Position numbers and translations under genes: made by a program. A DNA stretch of 64,000 nt, taken from assembly GCA_019359445.1 (NCBI GenBank), contig JAHHHJ010000001.1, positions 124,001 through 188,000 of the forward strand, given 5' to 3'. This stretch comes from Kastovskya adunca ATA6-11-RM4. GTDB lineage: Bacteria; Cyanobacteriota; Cyanobacteriia; Cyanobacteriales; Coleofasciculaceae. The notes beneath the pieces are model-generated. The model was not told where the DNA came from, ran no database searches, and worked only from the letters and a program-made list of their open reading frames with translations. This document shows, piece by piece, positions 1,988-56,427 of the stretch. Within the stretch, counting starts at the first letter, position 1, and each line of letters starts with the position of its first letter.

Positions 1988-4072
1988 GTGCCATTATCTC
2001 TAGAAGAGCGTTTGAGAGCAGAGCGGCATCGTCAATTCGTTGGTCGTACTCCCGAGCTGAATTTATTTAAAAGCGCGATTGCCGCAGCGGAATTACCCTT
2101 TTGCGTCTTATACCTCTTCAGCCCTGGTGGTGTCGGGAAGACGACTTTACTAGGAGAGTTTGCACGGCTCTGCAAAGAGGCGCAAATACAGGTCACTTAC
2201 TTAGACGCCCGCCACCTAGAACCCACACCTAACTCGTTCCTCAGGGCGCTGGAAGTGGCGATGGTGCCACCCCAGCAGTCTGCCCTACAAACCTTAGCTG
2301 ACAGTAGCGATCGCCACGTTATTTTAATTGATACCTACGAAACCCTCGCCTCTCTTGATGAATGGCTGCGCCAAGAGTTTCTTCCTACCCTCTCAGAAAA
2401 TACTCTCATTGTTCTAGCAGGTCGCCAATCTCCTAGCGCCCCTTGGCGATCTGATCCAGGCTGGCAAGCCTTGATGCACTTATTGCCGCTACGCAACCTC
2501 TCTCCAGAGGAAAGCCGCACTTACCTGACTAAACGACAAATCCCCAAAGCGCAGCATCAAGCGATTCTCGACTTTACCCACGGTCATTCGCTGGCTCTCT
2601 CGATGGTGGCTGATGTATTGGCTCAAAGACAGGACATCACCTTTCAACCGGAAGGGGTGCCAGATGTGATCAAAACACTCCTAGACAGATTTGTGCAAGA
2701 GGTACCCAGTAACGCCCACCGGATGGCGTTGGAAGCTTGTGCAAGCGTGCGTCTGACAACTGAAGCCCTATTAGCGAAGATGCTAGCAATACCTGATGCC
2801 CATGAGTTATTCAACTGGCTGCGCGGACTGACGTTCATTGAGTCAGGGAAGCTGGGTATATTTCCCCATGACTTAGCGCGGGAAGTTTTGATTGCTGACT
2901 TGCGCTGGCGCAATCGCGATTGGTACACCGAACTCCATCAACGCGCCCGCACCTATTACACGACACGCTTAGGGCAAACTCAAGGTCAGCAACAGCACCG
3001 CCTTCTCTTTGATTACATTTTTCTCCATCGCGATAACCCAGCCGTTAGACCGAGTTTTATCTGGCAAGAAAACAAAAGCCTGACGACGGACACCCTCCAG
3101 GAAACCGATCGAGACGCCTTGCTAGAAATGGTAAGCGATCGCGAAGGAGAAGAATCAGCAAAACTAGCCGCCTACTGGATAGCAAGGCAACCGCAGGGAG
3201 TGCTAGTCTTTCGAGATGCTGCTTTATCAAAGCTGGCTGGATTTATCATGATGCTGGCACTCCATCATGCCAGTGAGGAAGATTTACAAATAGATCCGGC
3301 GGCGGCGGCGGCTTGGAATTACCTCCAAAATCATGCCCCCTTACGCCCTGGTGAAGGGGCAACTCTCTTCCGCTTCTGGATGGCACACGACACTTATCAA
3401 GCCGTTTCACCTATACAAAGTCTGATCTTCATTACCTTTGTGCAACATCATCGCAATACAGCCGGGCTTGCCTTCACCTTTTTTCCCTGTGCAGAACCAG
3501 ATTATTGGACAGCGATGTTTGCCTATGCCGACTTGACGCGTATTCCTGAGGCGGATTTTACAGTCGGGGGGCGTCGCTATGGCGTTTACGGACATGACTG
3601 GCGAGTGATATCACCTGCCGCTTGGCAAGAACTGCTGGCTCAACGAGAGGTGGCAGCTTCTGCCCTGGCAATTTCCCCCTCACAAGTGACTGAACCCTTA
3701 CTCGTCTTAAGTCAGTCTGAGTTTGTTAGTGCTGTGCAGGATGTGTTTCGTCAATTTTCTCGCCCTAATGCCCTTCAGAATAATCCCTTGTTGCGATCGC
3801 GATTATTAGTTGAACAAGTGACAGGCAAGGTGAGTGCTGCCGAAGGCATTACCATGTTGCAAACTCTTGTCAAAGAAGCGACTGAATCCTTACAGTCATC
3901 ACCCCGCGATCAAAAACTGTACCGTGCCTTAGAGCGCACTTATTTAAATCCCGCCCCCACCCAAGAACAAGCGGCTGAATTGCTAGATTTACCCTTTAGT
4001 ACCTATCGCCGCCATCTCAAGTCAGGAATGACGCGAGTGGCGGAAACTCTCTGGCAACGGGAAATCAGTTGA
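1988..4072 (+). CDS. STAND/AAA-type ATPase with C-terminal helix-turn-helix-like end
   Basis: 694 residues from a GTG start. An N-terminal NTPase domain shows a Walker A loop (SPGGVGKTTLL, about residue 46), a Walker B strand (HVILIDTYETL, about residue 115) and an arginine sensor strand (LIVLAGR, about residue 140). Helical segments like those of MalT/NB-ARC regulators follow (LSPEESRTYL, then HGHSLALSMVADVL). The middle has no recognised domain. The last 50 residues (TQEQAAELLDLPFSTYRRHL) read as a helix-turn-helix of the sigma-region-4/LuxR kind. This order suits a signal-responsive regulatory ATPase: nucleotide binding in front, DNA binding or oligomerisation behind. The ligand is unknown and I see no effector gene beside it. 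Confidence 0.75.
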   Translation: MPLSLEERLRAERHRQFVGRTPELNLFKSAIAAAELPFCVLYLFSPGGVGKTTLLGEFARLCKEAQIQVTYLDARHLEPTPNSFLRALEVAMVPPQQSALQTLADSSDRHVILIDTYETLASLDEWLRQEFLPTLSENTLIVLAGRQSPSAPWRSDPGWQALMHLLPLRNLSPEESRTYLTKRQIPKAQHQAILDFTHGHSLALSMVADVLAQRQDITFQPEGVPDVIKTLLDRFVQEVPSNAHRMALEACASVRLTTEALLAKMLAIPDAHELFNWLRGLTFIESGKLGIFPHDLAREVLIADLRWRNRDWYTELHQRARTYYTTRLGQTQGQQQHRLLFDYIFLHRDNPAVRPSFIWQENKSLTTDTLQETDRDALLEMVSDREGEESAKLAAYWIARQPQGVLVFRDAALSKLAGFIMMLALHHASEEDLQIDPAAAAAWNYLQNHAPLRPGEGATLFRFWMAHDTYQAVSPIQSLIFITFVQHHRNTAGLAFTFFPCAEPDYWTAMFAYADLTRIPEADFTVGGRRYGVYGHDWRVISPAAWQELLAQREVAASALAISPSQVTEPLLVLSQSEFVSAVQDVFRQFSRPNALQNNPLLRSRLLVEQVTGKVSAAEGITMLQTLVKEATESLQSSPRDQKLYRALERTYLNPAPTQEQAAELLDLPFSTYRRHLKSGMTRVAETLWQREIS

Positions 4073-29439: not shown

Positions 29440-29543
29440 TATTTACAATCTGGTTTTGCCGAAAAATTTTGTGACTGCTCAAATCCTTCCGGATTAGGCT
29501 CGCTTACTTGGGGAATAAAGAAGTGGTAGATGCACCCTGGTTT

Positions 29544-29577
29544 AGCTCTGGAGTTTAGGCTCTAGAGCTTTTTTTTT
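29544..29577 (+). terminator. Strong plus-strand terminator without a plus-strand gene
   Basis: AGCTCTGGAG and CTCTAGAGCT pair (one mismatch) over TTTAGG and run into nine T. The two flanking genes are on the minus strand, so it would end an unannotated plus-strand transcript. Confidence 0.7.
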
Positions 29578-46724: not shown

Positions 46725-48002
46725 GTGAGCATAGAAACGCTAGCAGAGAATTCTTCTATTCCTGCTGAATCAGGCACATCAACTCCCTACAACCCAGCAG
46801 ATTTTGATACCAGCGTAATGGCGACCTACGGGCGTTTTCCGCTGGCGTTGGAAAAAGGTGAAGGTTGCCGGGTTTGGGATACCGAAGGGCGCGAATATCT
46901 GGATTTTGTGGCGGGAATTGCCACTTGTACCCTGGGACATGCCCACCCCGCCTTAGTTGAAACCGTTACCCAGCAAATCAAAAAGCTGCACCATGTCTCC
47001 AACCTCTACTACATCCCGGAACAAGGGCAGCTAGCAAAGTGGATTATCGATCATTCCTGTGCAGAGCGAGTATTTTTCTGCAACTCCGGTGCTGAGGCAA
47101 ATGAAGCGGCAATCAAACTTACCCGGAAGTATGCTCACACTGTGATGGATATTGAACATCCTGTAATCTTGACAGCTAAAGCAAGTTTCCACGGGCGGAC
47201 GCTGGCAACAATTACCGCCACCGGACAGCCAAAGTACCAAAAGAATTTTAATCCCCTAGTCCCAGGATTCCATTACGTACCTTATAACGACCTACGGGCA
47301 ATCGAAAATGCGATCGCTGACCTAGATGAGGGCAACGAGCGAGTCGCCGCAATTATGCTAGAAGGCTTGCAAGGAGAAGGTGGCGTCCGTCCTGGAAATT
47401 TAGATTACTTCCTACGGTTGCGGAAAATCTGCGACGAAACAGGACTCCTGCTGATTATGGATGAAGTGCAGATCGGCATGGGTCGCACCGGGAAGTATTG
47501 GGGCTACGAAAATTTGGGCATCGAGCCAGATATCTTCACCAGTGCTAAAGGGTTAGCCGGGGGCATCCCCATTGGCGCGATGATGTGCAAGAAATTCTGC
47601 GATGTTTTCCAAGCTGGGGAACATGCCAGCACCTTTGGAGGGAATCCCCTGGCTTGTGCGGCTGCCCTTACGGTGGGTCAGACCTTGGAACAGGAAAACA
47701 TTCTCCAAAACGTGCAGGAACGGGGCGAACAACTCCGCAAAGGCTTAAGAGCGATCGCTGCAAAATATCCTGACTTAGTTACCGATGTGCGTGGCTGGGG
47801 ATTAATTAACGGCATGGAACTGAGTGCCGACGCCGAAGTCACCTCCGCCGATGTGGTTAAAGCCGCGATTCAAGACGGTTTGCTCCTTGTTCCCGCTGGC
47901 CCTAAAGTCGTCCGCTTCGTCCCGCCCTTAATTGTCACAGCCGAAGAAGTCGAGCGGGCAGTGGAAGTAGTGGAAAAGGCAATAAAAACGGTCACTGCCT
48001 AA
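46725..48002 (+). CDS. argD: Acetylornithine aminotransferase
   Basis: 425 residues from GTG. A class III PLP enzyme that transfers an amino group to N-acetylglutamate semialdehyde in arginine synthesis. Conserved text: GREYLDFVAGIATCTLGHAH, FFCNSGAEANEAAIKLTR (GAEA), SFHGRTLATITATGQPKY, LLIMDEVQIGMGRTGKYW (Asp that holds PLP), FTSAKGLAGGIPIGAM (catalytic Lys in SAKGLAGG) and HASTFGGNPLACAAAL. The length is normal. The preceding spacer holds a palindrome at 46599. Confidence 0.95.
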   Translation: MSIETLAENSSIPAESGTSTPYNPADFDTSVMATYGRFPLALEKGEGCRVWDTEGREYLDFVAGIATCTLGHAHPALVETVTQQIKKLHHVSNLYYIPEQGQLAKWIIDHSCAERVFFCNSGAEANEAAIKLTRKYAHTVMDIEHPVILTAKASFHGRTLATITATGQPKYQKNFNPLVPGFHYVPYNDLRAIENAIADLDEGNERVAAIMLEGLQGEGGVRPGNLDYFLRLRKICDETGLLLIMDEVQIGMGRTGKYWGYENLGIEPDIFTSAKGLAGGIPIGAMMCKKFCDVFQAGEHASTFGGNPLACAAALTVGQTLEQENILQNVQERGEQLRKGLRAIAAKYPDLVTDVRGWGLINGMELSADAEVTSADVVKAAIQDGLLLVPAGPKVVRFVPPLIVTAEEVERAVEVVEKAIKTVTA

Positions 48003-48328
48003 GTTGAGAGCGCGTTGTTGGTCGTTAGGGACAAGCTAGCGACCAGTCAGCTTCTCCCGCTAAATCGAAGATTCTAACGGGAGCTTGAGGAGAAACACGC
48101 TCACTCCAAGCGTAAAGCAAGCTGAATAGCCCACTGAGTTCTTTGGCGTTACACACTTCCTTGTGCCACGCCAGCAGGGATTATCTGTTTGACCTAACCA
48201 GTTGTTAGGAATCGCGACAAAGAATGGGCGAGGGGTAGTTGGGAAACGTTTCGACTAGGCTACTTCGACAAGGCTCAGTACAAGTCAACGACCACCAACA
48301 AGTACAGTCAACAAACTGGATTATCTCC
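48003..48328 (+). ncRNA. Candidate guide RNA region of the IsrB locus
   Basis: About 325 bases without an open frame between argD and isrB. In IscB/IsrB loci the omega RNA lies upstream of the protein gene with its guide at the transposon left end. Here an intact hairpin CTCCCG...CGGGAG (48054-48083), further pairing segments near 48150-48200 and a 30-base repeat (48258) fill the space. The exact 5' end and guide cannot be set by eye. Confidence 0.4.
48054..48083. repeat. Flanking repeat of the IsrB locus, upstream copy
   Basis: CTCCCGCTAAATCGAAGATT and continuing; 24 of 28 bases match the sequence at 49471-49498, which overlaps the isrB stop. Forms a 6-base-pair hairpin. Probably the conserved element end. 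Confidence 0.55.
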
Positions 48329-49480
48329 ATGTTCAACAAACGTGTACCAGTCCTGAATCCCGATGGCACTCCTGCGATGCCCACCTCATCATCAAGGGCA
48401 AGGCGCTGGGTTAGAAACGGGAAAGCCAAAGTAGTACAAAACGACCTGCGAGTATTCTGCGTTCAACTCGTTGAAGAACCATCGGGTAGAGCTTACCAAG
48501 ATATTAGTCTTGGCATCGACCCCGGAAGCGGCTTTACTGGCGTAGCTGTTCAGTCTAAGCAAAACACCTTGATTGGGTTGAACCTTAACCTACCCAAGAA
48601 GCAAGTTCAAAAACGACTAGCACAACGGGCTATACTTCGCCGAATGCGACGGGGACGACGAATCAAACGAAGTCTTCCCTTCAAACTTCGCAACCACAGA
48701 CAGAAGAGATTTAATAATCGCCGACCATCTAAGCTACCTCCCAGCATTAGAGCCAACAAGCAACTAGAACTGAGAGTTATAGACGAACTGCGGCGATTGT
48801 ATCCAATCACTCACGCTTATGTAGAGCGACTCAACAAGTCAGATAGCCCTGGCTTTACTGTTGCCGCTCAAGGTCAAACATTCTTAATCAAAGAACTAAA
48901 TAATCGCTTTCCGGTGATCTTAGTTAAAGGATGGGAAACTAAGGCAACAAGGGAATGGCTCAAACTTCCCAAGTCTAAAAATAAGGCAGAGCAAGCACCT
49001 GCCGCACACGTATCGGATGCTATAGCGCAAGCCGCTCGGCACTTCATCCGGTATGCAGTCAATACGACTGGGAGACAGACAGGACATCAATGGAAAGGGT
49101 CAATTCAGGTGACACCCTTCACCTTTGGTATCGTAGAGCGCCTTCCTTCAAGACCCCGTAAGATGCACGACTTAACCGTTCAAAAAGGTGGGATTCGTGA
49201 TACATACGGTGGTTTTGAGGGGACGCACTCTTTCAAAAACGGAGATTATGTTGAGTACAAAACCAAGCGCTCAACACTTCGGCCTGGCTACTTCGACAAG
49301 GCTCAGTACAAGTCAGTGACCACCCTTAAAGGATATATCAGTGCTAACGATTTGTATCAATTCTTCCCTACTAAAAAGCGACTCAAGCAGGGTGTAACTG
49401 ACAAAAACACCCGATTGATTCGCTACTCAAGTCACCTAATCGTAAACCTACGTGGAGGACTGGCATTCCTCTCCTGCTAA
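48329..49480 (+). CDS. isrB: IsrB-like RNA-guided nuclease (IscB family, no HNH)
   Basis: 383 residues from ATG 48329 (an in-frame extension to 48239 adds only repeat-derived residues). A PLMP-type front (VPVLNPDGTPAMPTSSSRAR), RuvC-I with Asp64 (SLGIDPGSG), a basic bridge helix (about 90-120, QKRLAQRAILRRMRRGRRIK), RuvC-II with Glu166 (HAYVERLN) and RuvC-III with His227 and Asp230 (AHVSDAIA). All three RuvC acids are present, but only 64 residues separate RuvC-II from RuvC-III, too few for an HNH nuclease. This is the IsrB architecture, known in other systems to nick one strand under RNA guidance. The C-terminal part (about 245-383) would face the target. No tnpA is nearby. Confidence 0.82.
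   Translation: MFNKRVPVLNPDGTPAMPTSSSRARRWVRNGKAKVVQNDLRVFCVQLVEEPSGRAYQDISLGIDPGSGFTGVAVQSKQNTLIGLNLNLPKKQVQKRLAQRAILRRMRRGRRIKRSLPFKLRNHRQKRFNNRRPSKLPPSIRANKQLELRVIDELRRLYPITHAYVERLNKSDSPGFTVAAQGQTFLIKELNNRFPVILVKGWETKATREWLKLPKSKNKAEQAPAAHVSDAIAQAARHFIRYAVNTTGRQTGHQWKGSIQVTPFTFGIVERLPSRPRKMHDLTVQKGGIRDTYGGFEGTHSFKNGDYVEYKTKRSTLRPGYFDKAQYKSVTTLKGYISANDLYQFFPTKKRLKQGVTDKNTRLIRYSSHLIVNLRGGLAFLSC
49286..49315 (+). repeat. 30-bp repeat within isrB matching the upstream spacer
   Basis: Identical over 30 bases to 48258-48287 (GGCTACTTCGACAAGGCTCA and following), then seven more matches after two changes. In the gene it encodes GYFDKAQYKS. Confidence 0.8.
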
Positions 49481-49498
49481 ATCAAAGATTGTAACGGC
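49471..49498. repeat. Flanking repeat of the IsrB locus, downstream copy
   Basis: CTCCTGCTAAATCAAAGATT and on; 24 of 28 bases match 48054. It overlaps the last codons and stop of isrB. Confidence 0.55.
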
Positions 49499-49506
49499 GG
49501 TCGTTG

Positions 49507-49620
49507 AGCGTTCGACTGAGCGGTTCAGCTGAGCGTTCGACTGTCCTTCGGCAGGCTCAGGAACCGCGCTCACGCCGAAGTCTCACCGTCGAAGCCTCAC
49601 GCCGAAGTCTTGCCGAAACG
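49507..49620. repeat. Block of short inverted repeats (TTCGACTGAGCG type)
   Basis: GAGCGTTCGACTGAGCGGTT, GAGCGTTCGACTGTCC, GGCAGGCTCAGGAACC and several CGCCGAAGTCT units arranged in both directions. Resembles the CTTCGACAAGGCTCAG dispersed repeat seen inside isrB. Confidence 0.65.
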
Positions 49621-49718
49621 GAGTCTCCTGCCAGAAGAAAAGATGACCAAAAGGATTTTGTCTGCACAATTGCGTACTAAAGCAGAGACGCGATCGCCTT
49701 TCTTTTCTACAGTAGTAA

Positions 49719-49740
49719 GGGCATGAACACTGCCATGCCC
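49719..49740. terminator. Palindromic hairpin near isrB end
   Basis: GGGCATG and CATGCCC around an 8-base loop. Possibly a terminator for the convergent genes isrB (plus) and the SH3 gene (minus), though without a T-run. Confidence 0.4.
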
Positions 49741-49804
49741 CTAAAAATCCCTACTTAATAATTCGGACTTGAAAGGTTATTTCCCTCTCACCGGGTATTA
49801 AGTA

Positions 49805-50497
49805 TTAAGGACAACGAAACTGGGAGCTAAGGTTGCCCTCTGGGAACCCACTAGAAACCCAGCCAGCAACAGGCGAGGCAATCTGTATCCAGGTGCGTCC
49901 TGTCGCATCTCTTTGACTGCGTGGCGGATTTGTGAGCCTGACTGTGGTGTTAAAGTTGACGCCACCAACTTGCGAAAAGTTGGTACCTGGGCCAGAACGG
50001 ACGCTCAGACCATCAGCGACTGTTACAGTGCGGCAGAGGTTTGCCTGTGGTGCTGGTGCTGGTGCTGGTGCTGGTGCTGGTGCTGGTGCTGGTGCTGGTG
50101 CTGGTGCTGGCGGCGGTGTCGGTGAGACTGCACCGCAAGCTGTAAGATATCTGGCAATCACAAAACCATTAACAGGAGCGCTAACCTGTATCCAACCTTC
50201 GCTACCGTTACCTGCAAGCGTCACCCGCTGGCTAGGTTCTAAGGTGTAAAGCACTTGACTTTCAGGGGCAACCGAACGCTGCGATAAAATATCAAGTGTC
50301 CGATTGGTGGCGCGGCATTGTCCGACCAGTCCCTGTGCCAGTTGCAACTCGCCTGGAAAGGCGTTTGATTCAGATTGTTGAACGTTATTGGTTGCCGGAC
50401 TAGTGACATTGGTAGCCGTCGCTTTGATACTTCCCAATGTGCTGAGGAAGACTGCCAACAGAGCAATCGACTTGCTCCAATAATTGATCCTTTTCAT
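49805..50497 (-). CDS. Secreted protein with two bacterial SH3-like domains
   Basis: 230 residues. An export signal (residues about 9-28, SIALLAVFLSTLGSIKATA) precedes an SH3b-like domain (about 58-120: CRATNRTLDILSQ, VLYTLEPSQRVTLAGNGSEG, WIQVSAPVNGFVIARYL). A Pro-Ala repeat linker (PAPAPAP..., from the 6-base microsatellite at 50048) is followed by a second SH3b domain (DGLSVRSGPGTNFSQVGGVN, TWIQIASPVAGWVS). Paired SH3b domains bind wall peptides or polymers in other secreted proteins. Its binding target here is unknown. Confidence 0.85.
   Translation of the reverse strand: MKRINYWSKSIALLAVFLSTLGSIKATATNVTSPATNNVQQSESNAFPGELQLAQGLVGQCRATNRTLDILSQRSVAPESQVLYTLEPSQRVTLAGNGSEGWIQVSAPVNGFVIARYLTACGAVSPTPPPAPAPAPAPAPAPAPAPAPAPQANLCRTVTVADGLSVRSGPGTNFSQVGGVNFNTTVRLTNPPRSQRDATGRTWIQIASPVAGWVSSGFPEGNLSSQFRCP
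50048..50111. repeat. GGTGCT microsatellite in coding DNA
   Basis: About ten copies of GGTGCT (minus strand AGCACC), encoding the Pro-Ala linker of the SH3 protein. A typical site for slippage. Confidence 0.85.
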
Positions 50498-55194: not shown

Positions 55195-55330
55195 TTTGAC
55201 ACTCCCCGTGCTAAAGCAGCAGGGATTCTTGGTTCAACCAGTCGGCTTGCTCGTTGATGTCACTACCAAAGAGTAGAGGTCGGTCTGTCCCCAAGCGTTG
55301 ATTCCGGCGTGCCCCGCCGTATTTAACTCA
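55195..55330 (-). ncRNA. Candidate TnpB guide RNA at the gene's 3' end
   Basis: In this class the guide RNA overlaps the last part of tnpB and ends at the right end hairpin, followed by the guide. Here, after the stop, the minus strand shows the hairpin pair CCCTGCTG/CACGGGG and GAGTGTCAA, then a guide starting at about 55192. Ends inferred. Confidence 0.45.
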
Positions 55331-56427
55331 ACTCCTGCTCGCCGCAAAGCTTTCGCCAATATGTTCAGTGCAGCATTGTGGTCGCGATCTAACACCGTTC
55401 CACAGGAGCAAGTATGAGTTCTCTGTGATAATGACTTCTTGACTCGTGTTCCACAGCCAGAACAATCCTGTGATGTGTACTGGGGAGCAACAGCGATAAC
55501 TGTCTTCCCGTACACCCTACCCAGATATTGCAGCCAATCAGTGAACGACGACCAAGCTGCATCACTGATACTTTTGGCAAGCTTGTGGTTTTTCACCAGA
55601 TTCTTCACCTGCAAGTCTTCATAGGCAATGAAATCGCTAGATTTCACGACGCACAACGCCGTCTTAATGGCGAAGTCTTTACGCTGCCTACTGACTTTGA
55701 GGTGTTTTCTTCCTAACTTATTCATCGCCTTTTTGCGATTAGCCGAACCCAACTTCATTTTGGAGACTCGGCGCTGCGCCCTCTTAAGCGCTTTCTCGCT
55801 TTTACGCAGATAGCGAGGGTTAGCGATAGTTGCTCCAGTGCTGTCGGTGTAGAAATAGTTCAAGCCGACATCAAGACCAATAGCCTTGCCTGTTGGGGCG
55901 ACCTCTTCTGTTCGCTCTACATTAATACAGAACTGGGTATAGTAGCCGTCAGCTCTACGAATCACCCGTACTCGCTTAATCTCGGTTTGAGCATAGAAGT
56001 GCAAGTCTCGGCTACCAATCAACTTAAACGTTCCAGCGGCAAAACCATCGGTGAAAGTCAGGCTTCTTTTGTCAGAAGAGAGCCGCCAACCTGATGTTTT
56101 GTATTCTACGGAACGAGCGGATTTCTTAAATTGCGGATAGCCTTTCTTTCCCGGTTTGTTAGCTTTGCAATTAGCGAAGAAACGTTGGATAGCAAAAATA
56201 GTACGTTCAGCCGAAGCCTGACGTGCCATTGAGTTAAGTTTTCCTGCCCATTCAAACTCTTTAGCCAATACGGCACATTGCTTGTAGAGGTCGGACAACT
56301 TAACGTTTTGATTATCCATCCAGTACCGTAGAGCTTTGTTTCTGATAAACTGAGCTGTTCGGATCATGTCGTCGATGACCCGATACTGATGCGGCTTACC
56401 TTTTAACTTGAACTCTAGGACTATCAT
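55234..56427 (-). CDS. tnpB: TnpB-family RNA-guided nuclease
   Basis: 397 residues, normal length. RuvC acids are present: Asp186 (KAIGLDVGLNYF), Glu270 (DFIAYEDLQVKNL) and Asp349 (LDRDHNAALNIL). The zinc ribbon has four cysteines: Cys322, Cys325, Cys340 and Cys342 (SQDCSGCGTRVK, HTCSCGTVLD). The enzyme cuts DNA under RNA guidance. No frameshift or premature stop is seen, so it may be active. There is no tnpA. Confidence 0.88.
   Translation of the reverse strand: MIVLEFKLKGKPHQYRVIDDMIRTAQFIRNKALRYWMDNQNVKLSDLYKQCAVLAKEFEWAGKLNSMARQASAERTIFAIQRFFANCKANKPGKKGYPQFKKSARSVEYKTSGWRLSSDKRSLTFTDGFAAGTFKLIGSRDLHFYAQTEIKRVRVIRRADGYYTQFCINVERTEEVAPTGKAIGLDVGLNYFYTDSTGATIANPRYLRKSEKALKRAQRRVSKMKLGSANRKKAMNKLGRKHLKVSRQRKDFAIKTALCVVKSSDFIAYEDLQVKNLVKNHKLAKSISDAAWSSFTDWLQYLGRVYGKTVIAVAPQYTSQDCSGCGTRVKKSLSQRTHTCSCGTVLDRDHNAALNILAKALRRAGVELNTAGHAGINAWGQTDLYSLVVTSTSKPTG

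What the first reader, a model, noticed from the sequence alone, without database searches (positions are those of the whole stretch)
48003..49504. IsrB-like nuclease locus with a non-coding stretch that could be its guide RNA
Asp64, Glu166, His227 and Asp230 of the RuvC domain are intact, the N-terminus has the PAMP form of the PLMP motif, and only 64 residues lie between RuvC-II and RuvC-III, so the HNH domain is absent. This is the IsrB rather than the IscB plan, and such proteins act as RNA-guided nickases. The 325-base upstream spacer is open and foldable.
Basis: partly seen in the sequence, partly recalled or inferred. Interest (0 to 1): 0.65.

Follow-up and report, generated by a model that had tools for sequence, protein, structure and literature searches.

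The report
RNA-guided nickase on cyanobacterial jumping element

Summary
ORF 48329-49480 (383 aa) is an IsrB: PAMP motif, D64/E166/H227/D230, arginine-rich bridge helix, no HNH, near full-length match to solved DtIsrB. The upstream spacer holds its omegaRNA: a covariance model built from 32 other IsrB loci, window lineage left out, finds 48046-48235 at E 3e-14, its only significant hit in 64 kb; 33 of 41 pairs covary over 54 loci. The unit is an element, 48046-49642, followed by ATGA, a known NTGA-type motif; the guide is then the host DNA just before 48046. The genome holds a second copy (91%) and a 377-bp copy with omegaRNA but no ORF; a related genome has another, and two viral contigs carry a 61% relative. 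Whole-gene dN/dS is 0.11-0.18. Against full function: repeats have entered the spacer, the C-terminal domain and the right end, so this copy may no longer move. Beyond the window, 33 of 50 ATGA junctions of the clade open a frame of at least 60 aa, above both backgrounds tested (not the window copy), and two relatives carry a group II intron in or beside the omegaRNA. New member of a known kind; nicking and movement were not tested.

The parts
46725..48002 (+). host gene, class-III aminotransferase (argD by recall), left neighbour; the element starts 43 nt after its stop
   Evidence: Aminotran_3 E 2.7e-120; coordinates
48026..48045 (+). presumed 20-nt guide, taken from the host flank (5' of the scaffold); inferred from the DtIsrB layout
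   Evidence: flanks differ between copies while the scaffold starts sharply at the same base; guide length from PMC9581776 passages
48046..49642 (+). whole IsrB element (1597 nt)
   Evidence: left end shared with copies L002, L005, L146; right end CCAGAAGAAAAG or near it shared and followed by ATGA
48046..48235 (+). omegaRNA scaffold
   Evidence: R1 59.3 bits E 3.4e-14; HEARO 32 bits, E 2.4e-4, 48046-48243; 38 of 41 consensus pairs standard
48054..48083 (+). left-end hairpin of the omegaRNA (CTCCCG...CGGGAG)
   Evidence: helix 3, columns 9-17/65-74, has double changes in 8 of 9 pairs
48248..48293 (+). short repeat inserted between omegaRNA core and start codon (edges approximate); absent from L005
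   Evidence: alignment; coordinates; 26-nt core occurs twice in the window, none in shuffles
48318..48328 (+). GGATTATCTCC just before the start codon; the same or a similar stretch precedes the start in the clade loci aligned
48329..49480 (+). isrB, 383 aa; catalytic codons D64 48518-48520, E166 48824-48826, H227 49007-49009, D230 49016-49018
49274..49321 (+). in-frame 48-nt insertion (16 residues; edges approximate) with the same repeat core, in the C-terminal domain; shared with L002, absent from L005
49498..49619 (.). insertion of a dispersed repeat that splits the right-end hairpin (edges approximate)
   Evidence: against L002/L005; coordinates; pieces of it match about a dozen places of the own genome; imperfect tandem units
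49620..49642 (+). terminal part of the right end
49643..49646 (+). ATGA, target-adjacent motif in the right flank; here it opens only a 27-aa frame
   Evidence: NTGA TAM of DtIsrB in PMC9581776

Best explanation
The locus is an IsrB (OMEGA) element, 48046-49642, inserted 43 nt after argD in a cyanobacterium. It is transcribed as one RNA whose 5' part is an omegaRNA: about 20 nt of host flank (guide) plus a folded scaffold, followed by the isrB message. IsrB binds it and nicks the non-target strand of DNA that matches the left flank and is followed by ATGA. At its own site the guide sequence is followed by the element (GTCA), so it is spared; the empty site, left behind by excision or present on an uninserted copy, reads flank-ATGA and is nicked, which favours restoring the element by recombination. 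No transposase lies in the element; an IS200/IS605-type TnpA elsewhere in the genome may move it. Shown: protein family, catalytic residues, omegaRNA homology and covariation, sharp ends, several copies, ATGA at the junction, purifying selection. Inferred: guide length, transcription, nicking, retention role, which TnpA acts. The split right-end hairpin suggests that this particular copy may be fixed in place while its RNA-protein complex is still intact.
For: Protein: RRXRR E 3.1e-44; 8dmb E 1e-26 over query 5-353, 1e-59 with a 9-row profile; no HNH; tree. RNA: R1 built from 32 loci without the window lineage, 36 pairs of which 30 have double changes, hits the window at E 3.4e-14, L005 with 63.6 bits and the ORF-less copy with 45.9 bits; on 54 loci 94.3% of cells paired against 68.1% shuffled, 33 of 41 pairs with double changes, covariation 0.703 against 0.213, slid structures 0.045-0.138. 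Element: second copy 91% and further copies; ends; G006 copy absent at the matching place of G014, flanks 95% and 93%. ATGA follows 4 of 4 bacterial copies of this lineage and viral copy L181. Selection: dN/dS 0.108-0.176 over whole genes in three pairs by two methods; 0.094-0.208 when split in halves. Literature passages: DtIsrB nicks beside NTGA, and cyanobacterial CwIsrB and DsIsrB nick with NTG motifs (PMC9581776); a Microcystis gene with an IsrB-like structure, with 207 bp upstream and 59 bp downstream, was found inserted into a phage gene at ATGA (PMC11237433).
Against: HEARO stays below Rfam's curated score (32 against 83). Repeats have entered the stretch between omegaRNA core and start codon, the C-terminal domain and the right end. 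First pair of the closing stem is G-A in the window, L005 and L146. R1 did not find an RNA in every clade locus: of 27 clade loci, 21 had a hit at E below 1e-8, L002 only two partial hits, and L006, L028, L030, L034, L038 none (L006 explained by an intron; L034 and L038 begin 27 nt before the match). No TnpA in the element and no end sequences like it near five of the six Y1_Tnp loci; the sixth, L047, was not compared. The guide has no other strong match in the genome: only itself at 0 mismatches, and the reversed control pattern gives more hits than the pattern (64 against 36). G014 also lacks a neighbouring ~100-nt MITE-like stretch, so that empty site is not exact at the right edge. Fold energy gives no support. 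No expression or activity data.
Confidence: 0.86

Rival explanations
1. An IscB that lost its HNH domain and is decaying.
For: The NCBIfam IscB model also matches the N-terminal part (NF040563 103.7 bits, residues 8-167, cut-off 175); an IscB with an HNH-like stretch exists in the same genome (L004).
Against: Tree: seven IscB rows are one side of a branch at 100/99 (the program warns of long branches); the profile prefers IsrB by 40 orders of magnitude; 56 of 56 clade rows lack the HNH block; dN/dS 0.11-0.18.
Confidence: 0.03
2. An IsrB relic: once active, now a dead copy, since repeats have invaded its right end, C-terminal domain and omegaRNA-ORF spacer.
For: Insertions at about 48248-48293, 49274-49321 and 49498-49619; the omegaRNA of the sister copy L002 is cut into two partial hits.
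Against: Frame kept through the 48-nt insertion in both copies, which differ by dS 0.42-0.54 at dN/dS 0.11-0.14; catalytic residues kept; 38 of 41 RNA pairs standard.
Confidence: 0.2
3. A host-adopted RNA-guided protein: the immobile copy now serves the cell, for instance as a programmable binder or regulator driven by omegaRNAs from other loci such as the ORF-less unit.
For: Right end split, protein under purifying selection; an omegaRNA-only unit sits exactly before the start codon of a thiO-like gene in the same genome.
Against: RuvC residues are intact, whereas adopted nuclease-derived regulators often lose them (recalled); ORF-less copies are also expected from simple internal deletion; the lineage has copies at several places.
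Confidence: 0.07

Closest known systems
DtIsrB (Desulfovirgula thermocuniculi), PDB 8dmb, PMC9581776
   Same: PLMP-RuvC-bridge helix-TI layout, no HNH, omegaRNA directly upstream, NTGA motif
   Different: window protein has a longer stretch after the bridge helix and an insertion after RuvC-III, plus 16 residues from a repeat; long branch between them; the short IsrBs of related genomes are 28-36% identical to it
CwIsrB (Crocosphaera watsonii) and DsIsrB (Dolichospermum), PMC9581776
   Same: passages say that they nick DNA, use NTG motifs and have a beta-hairpin insertion in RuvC and a loop insertion in RECL; four Crocosphaera loci fall in the window clade
   Different: their own sequences were not at hand, so belonging to the same clade is inferred; the window lineage with L002, L005 and viral L181 is a separate branch (stem 1.18 changes per column)
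Microcystis orf2067 element, PMC11237433
   Same: IsrB-like gene with 207 bp upstream and 59 bp downstream found at ATGA in a new place
   Different: went into the inside of a phage gene; the passages seen do not call the upstream part an omegaRNA
HEARO RNA, Rfam RF02033
   Same: full-model match, same start base
   Different: 32 bits against a gathering score of 83
IS200/IS605 TnpB elements
   Same: RNA guide read from the flank and a retention or gene-drive role (TnpB: abstract of PMC11870625)
   Different: here the guide lies 5' of the scaffold and the motif 3' of the target (TnpB has the reverse, recalled); RuvC nickase of another family

Membership tests
IsrB | RuvC I-III with D, E, H, D | tested here: met
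   D64, E166, H227, D230 aligned with DtIsrB; in the 56 clade rows D, E and D are kept in 56 and H in 55
IsrB | no HNH between RuvC-II and RuvC-III | tested here: met
   60 residues; Pfam lists only RRXRR at E up to 10; HNH columns empty; structure model unusable
IsrB | N-terminal PLMP domain and arginine-rich bridge helix | tested here: met
   PAMP 15-18; RAILRRMRRGRRIKR
IsrB | C-terminal TAM-interacting domain | tested here: met
   phmmer alignment to 8dmb runs to query 353; carries a 16-residue insertion
IsrB | omegaRNA of the HEARO kind directly upstream on the same strand | tested here: met
   R1 E 3.4e-14; covariation
IsrB | NTGA motif beside the target | tested here: met
   ATGA directly after the right end; a genomic trace, not an assay
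IsrB | RNA-guided nicking of the non-target strand | not testable with these tools
   needs protein
Rfam HEARO RF02033 | score at or above the gathering cut-off | tested here: not met
   32 against 83 bits; in 16 other loci the HEARO hits were also below (best 45.2, L019)
IscB | HNH domain; NCBIfam NF040563 over cut-off | tested here: not met
   103.7 against 175 bits, residues 8-167 only
autonomous IS200/IS605 element | own TnpA (Y1 transposase) in the element | tested here: not met
   no ORF of 100 aa or more besides isrB in 48046-49642; six Y1_Tnp loci elsewhere in the genome

The most novel reading that the evidence does not exclude
IsrB elements of cyanobacteria and their phages favour start codons: they settle between a gene's leader and its ATGA start, so that the start codon is the target-adjacent motif and each omegaRNA guide is a copy of a gene's leader. 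The RNA-guided nickase then patrols translation starts, restores the element at empty ones, and can be lent to ORF-less omegaRNA units such as the one in front of the thiO-like gene in this genome.
Probability: 0.35. Interest if true: 0.7.

Novelty: new member of a known kind. Interest (0 to 1): 0.5.

Why it matters
The window itself adds a distinct IsrB lineage, seen in two cyanobacterial genomes and in viral contigs, with an omegaRNA model of the clade that finds it clearly where Rfam's curated threshold does not. The wider result makes a concrete question testable: why do these elements lie directly before start codons of core genes (by Pfam match: Sua5/YrdC, aconitase-C, nitrogenase-type, homocysteine methyltransferase, ATP sulfurylase, nitrite/sulphite reductase, RimK, ThiD2 with thiamine phosphate synthase, UPF0004, and a thiO-like oxidase), and how are those genes still translated? 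The ORF-less omegaRNA unit is a ready test of guides working in trans, and a group II intron inside an omegaRNA would make a guide RNA depend on splicing.

Tried and rejected
Hidden HNH or IscB origin: rejected. Fold energy as evidence for the RNA: no signal. Guide matching other places in the genome: none above the reversed control. Matching element ends to five of the six Y1_Tnp loci: only a 17-nt piece of repeat and an 11-nt match. Idea that the right end supplies a Shine-Dalgarno sequence to the gene behind it: rejected, strong anti-SD pairing in 13% of 68 right ends (many near-identical) against 15% of background ATGA. Exact empty site for the window copy: not found; in 20 genomes including its own, the DNA between argD and the next gene gave only matches to repeats and to parts of the element. 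Empty site for viral L181: no relative without the element found. The group II hit at 49734-49884 (19.6 bits, cut-off 34) is taken as chance. Promoter- and terminator-like sites: 3 and 3 found, shuffles 1.5 and 2.3. An earlier working label of the repeats as one family is corrected: the 15-base core of the spacer and ORF insertions has only four exact places in the genome, three of them in the two ORF-bearing copies; the right-end insertion is the dispersed one.

Full report
What is there. The ORF at 48329-49480 (+) encodes 383 aa; Pfam lists RRXRR only (E 3.1e-44). phmmer against solved structures gives DtIsrB 8dmb first, E 1e-26, query 5-353; a 9-row profile gives 1e-59 for 8dmb and 1.9e-19 for the best IscB. 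In an alignment of 68 proteins the HNH block of six IscBs holds 98-106 residues; 56 of 56 clade rows and 6 of 6 other IsrBs have at most 3 there; the catalytic D, E and D are kept in 56 of 56 clade rows and H in 55. In a tree of 69 rows seven IscBs are one side of a branch (100/99) and the window protein lies in a clade of 56 IsrB rows (99/91) from the window's order and named cyanobacteria; nine partial or repeated loci were left out, and the program warns of long branches, DtIsrB among them.

The guide RNA. Rfam's HEARO matches 48046-48243 over the full model, 32 bits, E 2.4e-4 in 1951 nt, but misses its curated score of 83 and is absent from the gathering-threshold list. I therefore aligned 32 upstream regions of other clade loci, chosen because their left end was recognisable, without the window lineage. 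RNAalifold gives 36 pairs, 30 with double changes. The resulting model R1 finds 48046-48235 in the 64-kb window, 59.3 bits, E 3.4e-14; the next hits have E 2.3 and 3.2. Of 27 clade loci searched, 21 had a hit at E below 1e-8; L002 had two partial hits (20.1 and 16.7 bits) and L006, L028, L030, L034, L038 none. I then aligned 54 loci with strong hits (L002, L028, L030, L034, L038 and L070 are not among them; L006 and L016 enter through the longer stretches L149 and L150). This alignment is fitted to the model; a five-pair closing stem was added that the model did not contain. 94.3% of cells are paired (shuffled 68.1%), 33 of 41 pairs have double changes, covariation is 0.703 (shuffled 0.213; slid by one to three columns 0.045-0.138). 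The first pair of the closing stem is U-A in 26 loci, G-C in 21 and unpaired in 7, the window lineage among these. The window copy keeps 38 of 41 pairs. Fold energy alone shows nothing.

The element. The second copy in the genome (C14, 91% in protein), the copy in related genome G006 (L005) and the window copy are alike from base 48046 onward and unlike before it. On the right they share CCAGAAGAAA(A)G followed by ATGA; in the window that is 49642 | 49643-49646. A third unit in the same genome, C26:155397-155773, is 377 bp: left end, omegaRNA (R1 45.9 bits, E 6.4e-11) and right end with the ORF deleted and its start codon gone. The G006 copy is missing at the matching place of G014, where the flanks adjoin; a MITE-like stretch of about 100 nt on its right is missing there too, so the right edge is fixed only by comparison between copies. 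dN/dS over whole genes is 0.108-0.176 in three pairs. Of 388 genomes drawn from the order, 21 have some DNA match and only G000 and G006 a long one. Two viral contigs of 212 and 155 kb, 4 differences in the 7 kb fetched, carry a 61% relative with its own omegaRNA (R1 68.3 bits, E 1.5e-16). In a second tree (45 chosen rows, quick method) it joins the window lineage at SH-aLRT 100.

How it most likely works. From DtIsrB (passages of PMC9581776): a 284-nt RNA with a 20-nt guide, nicking of the non-target strand beside NTGA, and two tested cyanobacterial relatives with NTG motifs. Here the guide would be 48026-48045 and the target the flank joined to ATGA. At the own site the flank is followed by GTCA, without the motif, so only the empty site would be nicked. 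That nicking restores the element by recombination is inference from the TnpB and IscB literature (abstract of PMC11870625 seen; the rest recalled). That elements of this kind move as upstream RNA + gene + right end is supported by the Microcystis case: orf2067 with 207 bp upstream and 59 bp downstream found inside phage Mic1 gp49 at ATGA (PMC11237433, passages).

What speaks against this copy. Short insertions sit between omegaRNA core and start codon, in frame in the C-terminal domain, and across the right-end hairpin. The first two share a core with only four exact places in the genome: both window insertions, the sister copy, and C26:192541 near the short IsrB L003; the third is a dispersed repeat with about a dozen places in the own genome. 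The sister copy L002 has its omegaRNA split. So of the three units found in this genome the window copy is the only one with both an ORF and an unbroken scaffold, but its mobility is doubtful.

A pattern in the clade. I located right ends without looking at genes, by pairwise alignment of 3' flanks: 88 copies tried, 72 gave alignment ends, 68 had an NTGA start within a 9-base tolerance (my estimate is about 13% by chance for one end), and 4 had none: L001, L011, L015, L220, the first because of the insertion in its right end. Only NTGA was looked for. Some single assignments are doubtful (for instance L061, L210, L213, and those supported by one end). After removing repeated flanks 63 remain: 50 ATGA, 10 TTGA, 3 CTGA. 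Of the 50 ATGA, 33 open a frame of at least 60 aa, 30 of at least 150, against 214 of 1146 ATGA in the surrounding DNA (Fisher 1.4e-12) and 94 of 298 ATGA that are intergenic or first ATG of a frame (4.5e-6); of the 13 others 3 do. An earlier count with hand-made end patterns gave 19 of 29, from 34 junctions found in 83 loci. Ten of the downstream proteins, chosen by me, were scanned and 10 of 10 match a Pfam family, RimK_N from residue 1. For the ORF-less unit the gene is thiO-like; in 6 of 6 related genomes searched the gene also starts with ATGA, and by eye the 60 nt before it hold no right end. L181 and Ma-LMM01 also end at an ATGA that opens the next gene (114 and 56 aa). Against the pattern: the window copy does not follow it (27 aa), nor do L005 and 16 others of the 50, and the one jump seen in the laboratory went into the inside of a gene (PMC11237433). 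Purging of insertions inside genes explains part of it; the second background was meant to allow for that, but it is rough. The idea that the right end brings a ribosome-binding site failed. Searches for this in print: 'IscB' with 'start codon' and 'insertion sequence', 'RRXRR' (15 of 17 listed), two of 'IscB', 'ATGA', 'insertion site' (15 of 417 listed): nothing of the kind in the listings; most subscription papers are not covered.

Verdict. The interest above that rests on the clade-wide start-codon pattern, the ORF-less guide unit and the intron-interrupted omegaRNA, none of which is proven in function.

Noticed in passing
L146 898-1274 (-), own genome C26:155397-155773: ORF-less copy: complete left end, omegaRNA and right end, 377 bp, directly before the ATGA start of a thiO-like oxidase; candidate guide acting in trans.
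   Followed up: partly
clade-wide right ends, e.g. L002, L012, L014, L021, L029, L036, L065, L206, L212: 33 of 50 non-redundant ATGA junctions of IsrB elements open frames of at least 60 aa, above two backgrounds.
   Followed up: partly
L150 2402-5289; L149 2636-4976: Group II introns with a reverse transcriptase-maturase-HNH protein: in L150 the intron lies inside the omegaRNA, in L149 between omegaRNA and isrB start codon. No paper with 'group II intron' and 'omegaRNA' in the library.
   Followed up: partly
L181, L182 (3001-4143); L191, L192, L205 (Microcystis phages Ma-LMM01, MaMV-CH01, MaMV-DC): IsrB in phages, with omegaRNA upstream by R1 in L181, L182, L191, L192 (L205 not searched); in the three Microcystis phage records annotated only as RRXRR or hypothetical protein.
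   Followed up: partly
L184, L185 at 771-963, 2780-2972, 3134-3326: Three omegaRNA hits close together in two viral contigs, one inside the isrB match: looks like an element nested in another.
   Followed up: no
L003, L004 (own genome): The same genome also has a short-type IsrB (351-aa frame) and an IscB (475-aa frame).
   Followed up: partly
window 55234-56427 (-): TnpB (OrfB_IS605, Cas12f1-like TNB) in the same window; no TnpA-like ORF of 100 aa or more recognised beside it in the list.
   Followed up: no
window 48248-48293, 49274-49321, 49498-49619; L002 omegaRNA: Short repeats have entered a loop of the sister omegaRNA, the spacer, the ORF in frame and the right end; other clade members carry a different palindrome in omegaRNA loops.
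   Followed up: partly
G006 right flank of L005; L152-L154: A MITE-like stretch (GACTTA..., about 90 nt) beside the G006 copy, with relatives at three other places of G014.
   Followed up: partly
window 50048-50110: About ten copies of TGGTGC in the minus-strand gene 49805-50497, coding for a Pro-Ala repeat.
   Followed up: no
window 29524-29576 (+): NsiR1 nitrogen-stress RNA, 51.6 bits; supports a cyanobacterial host.
   Followed up: no
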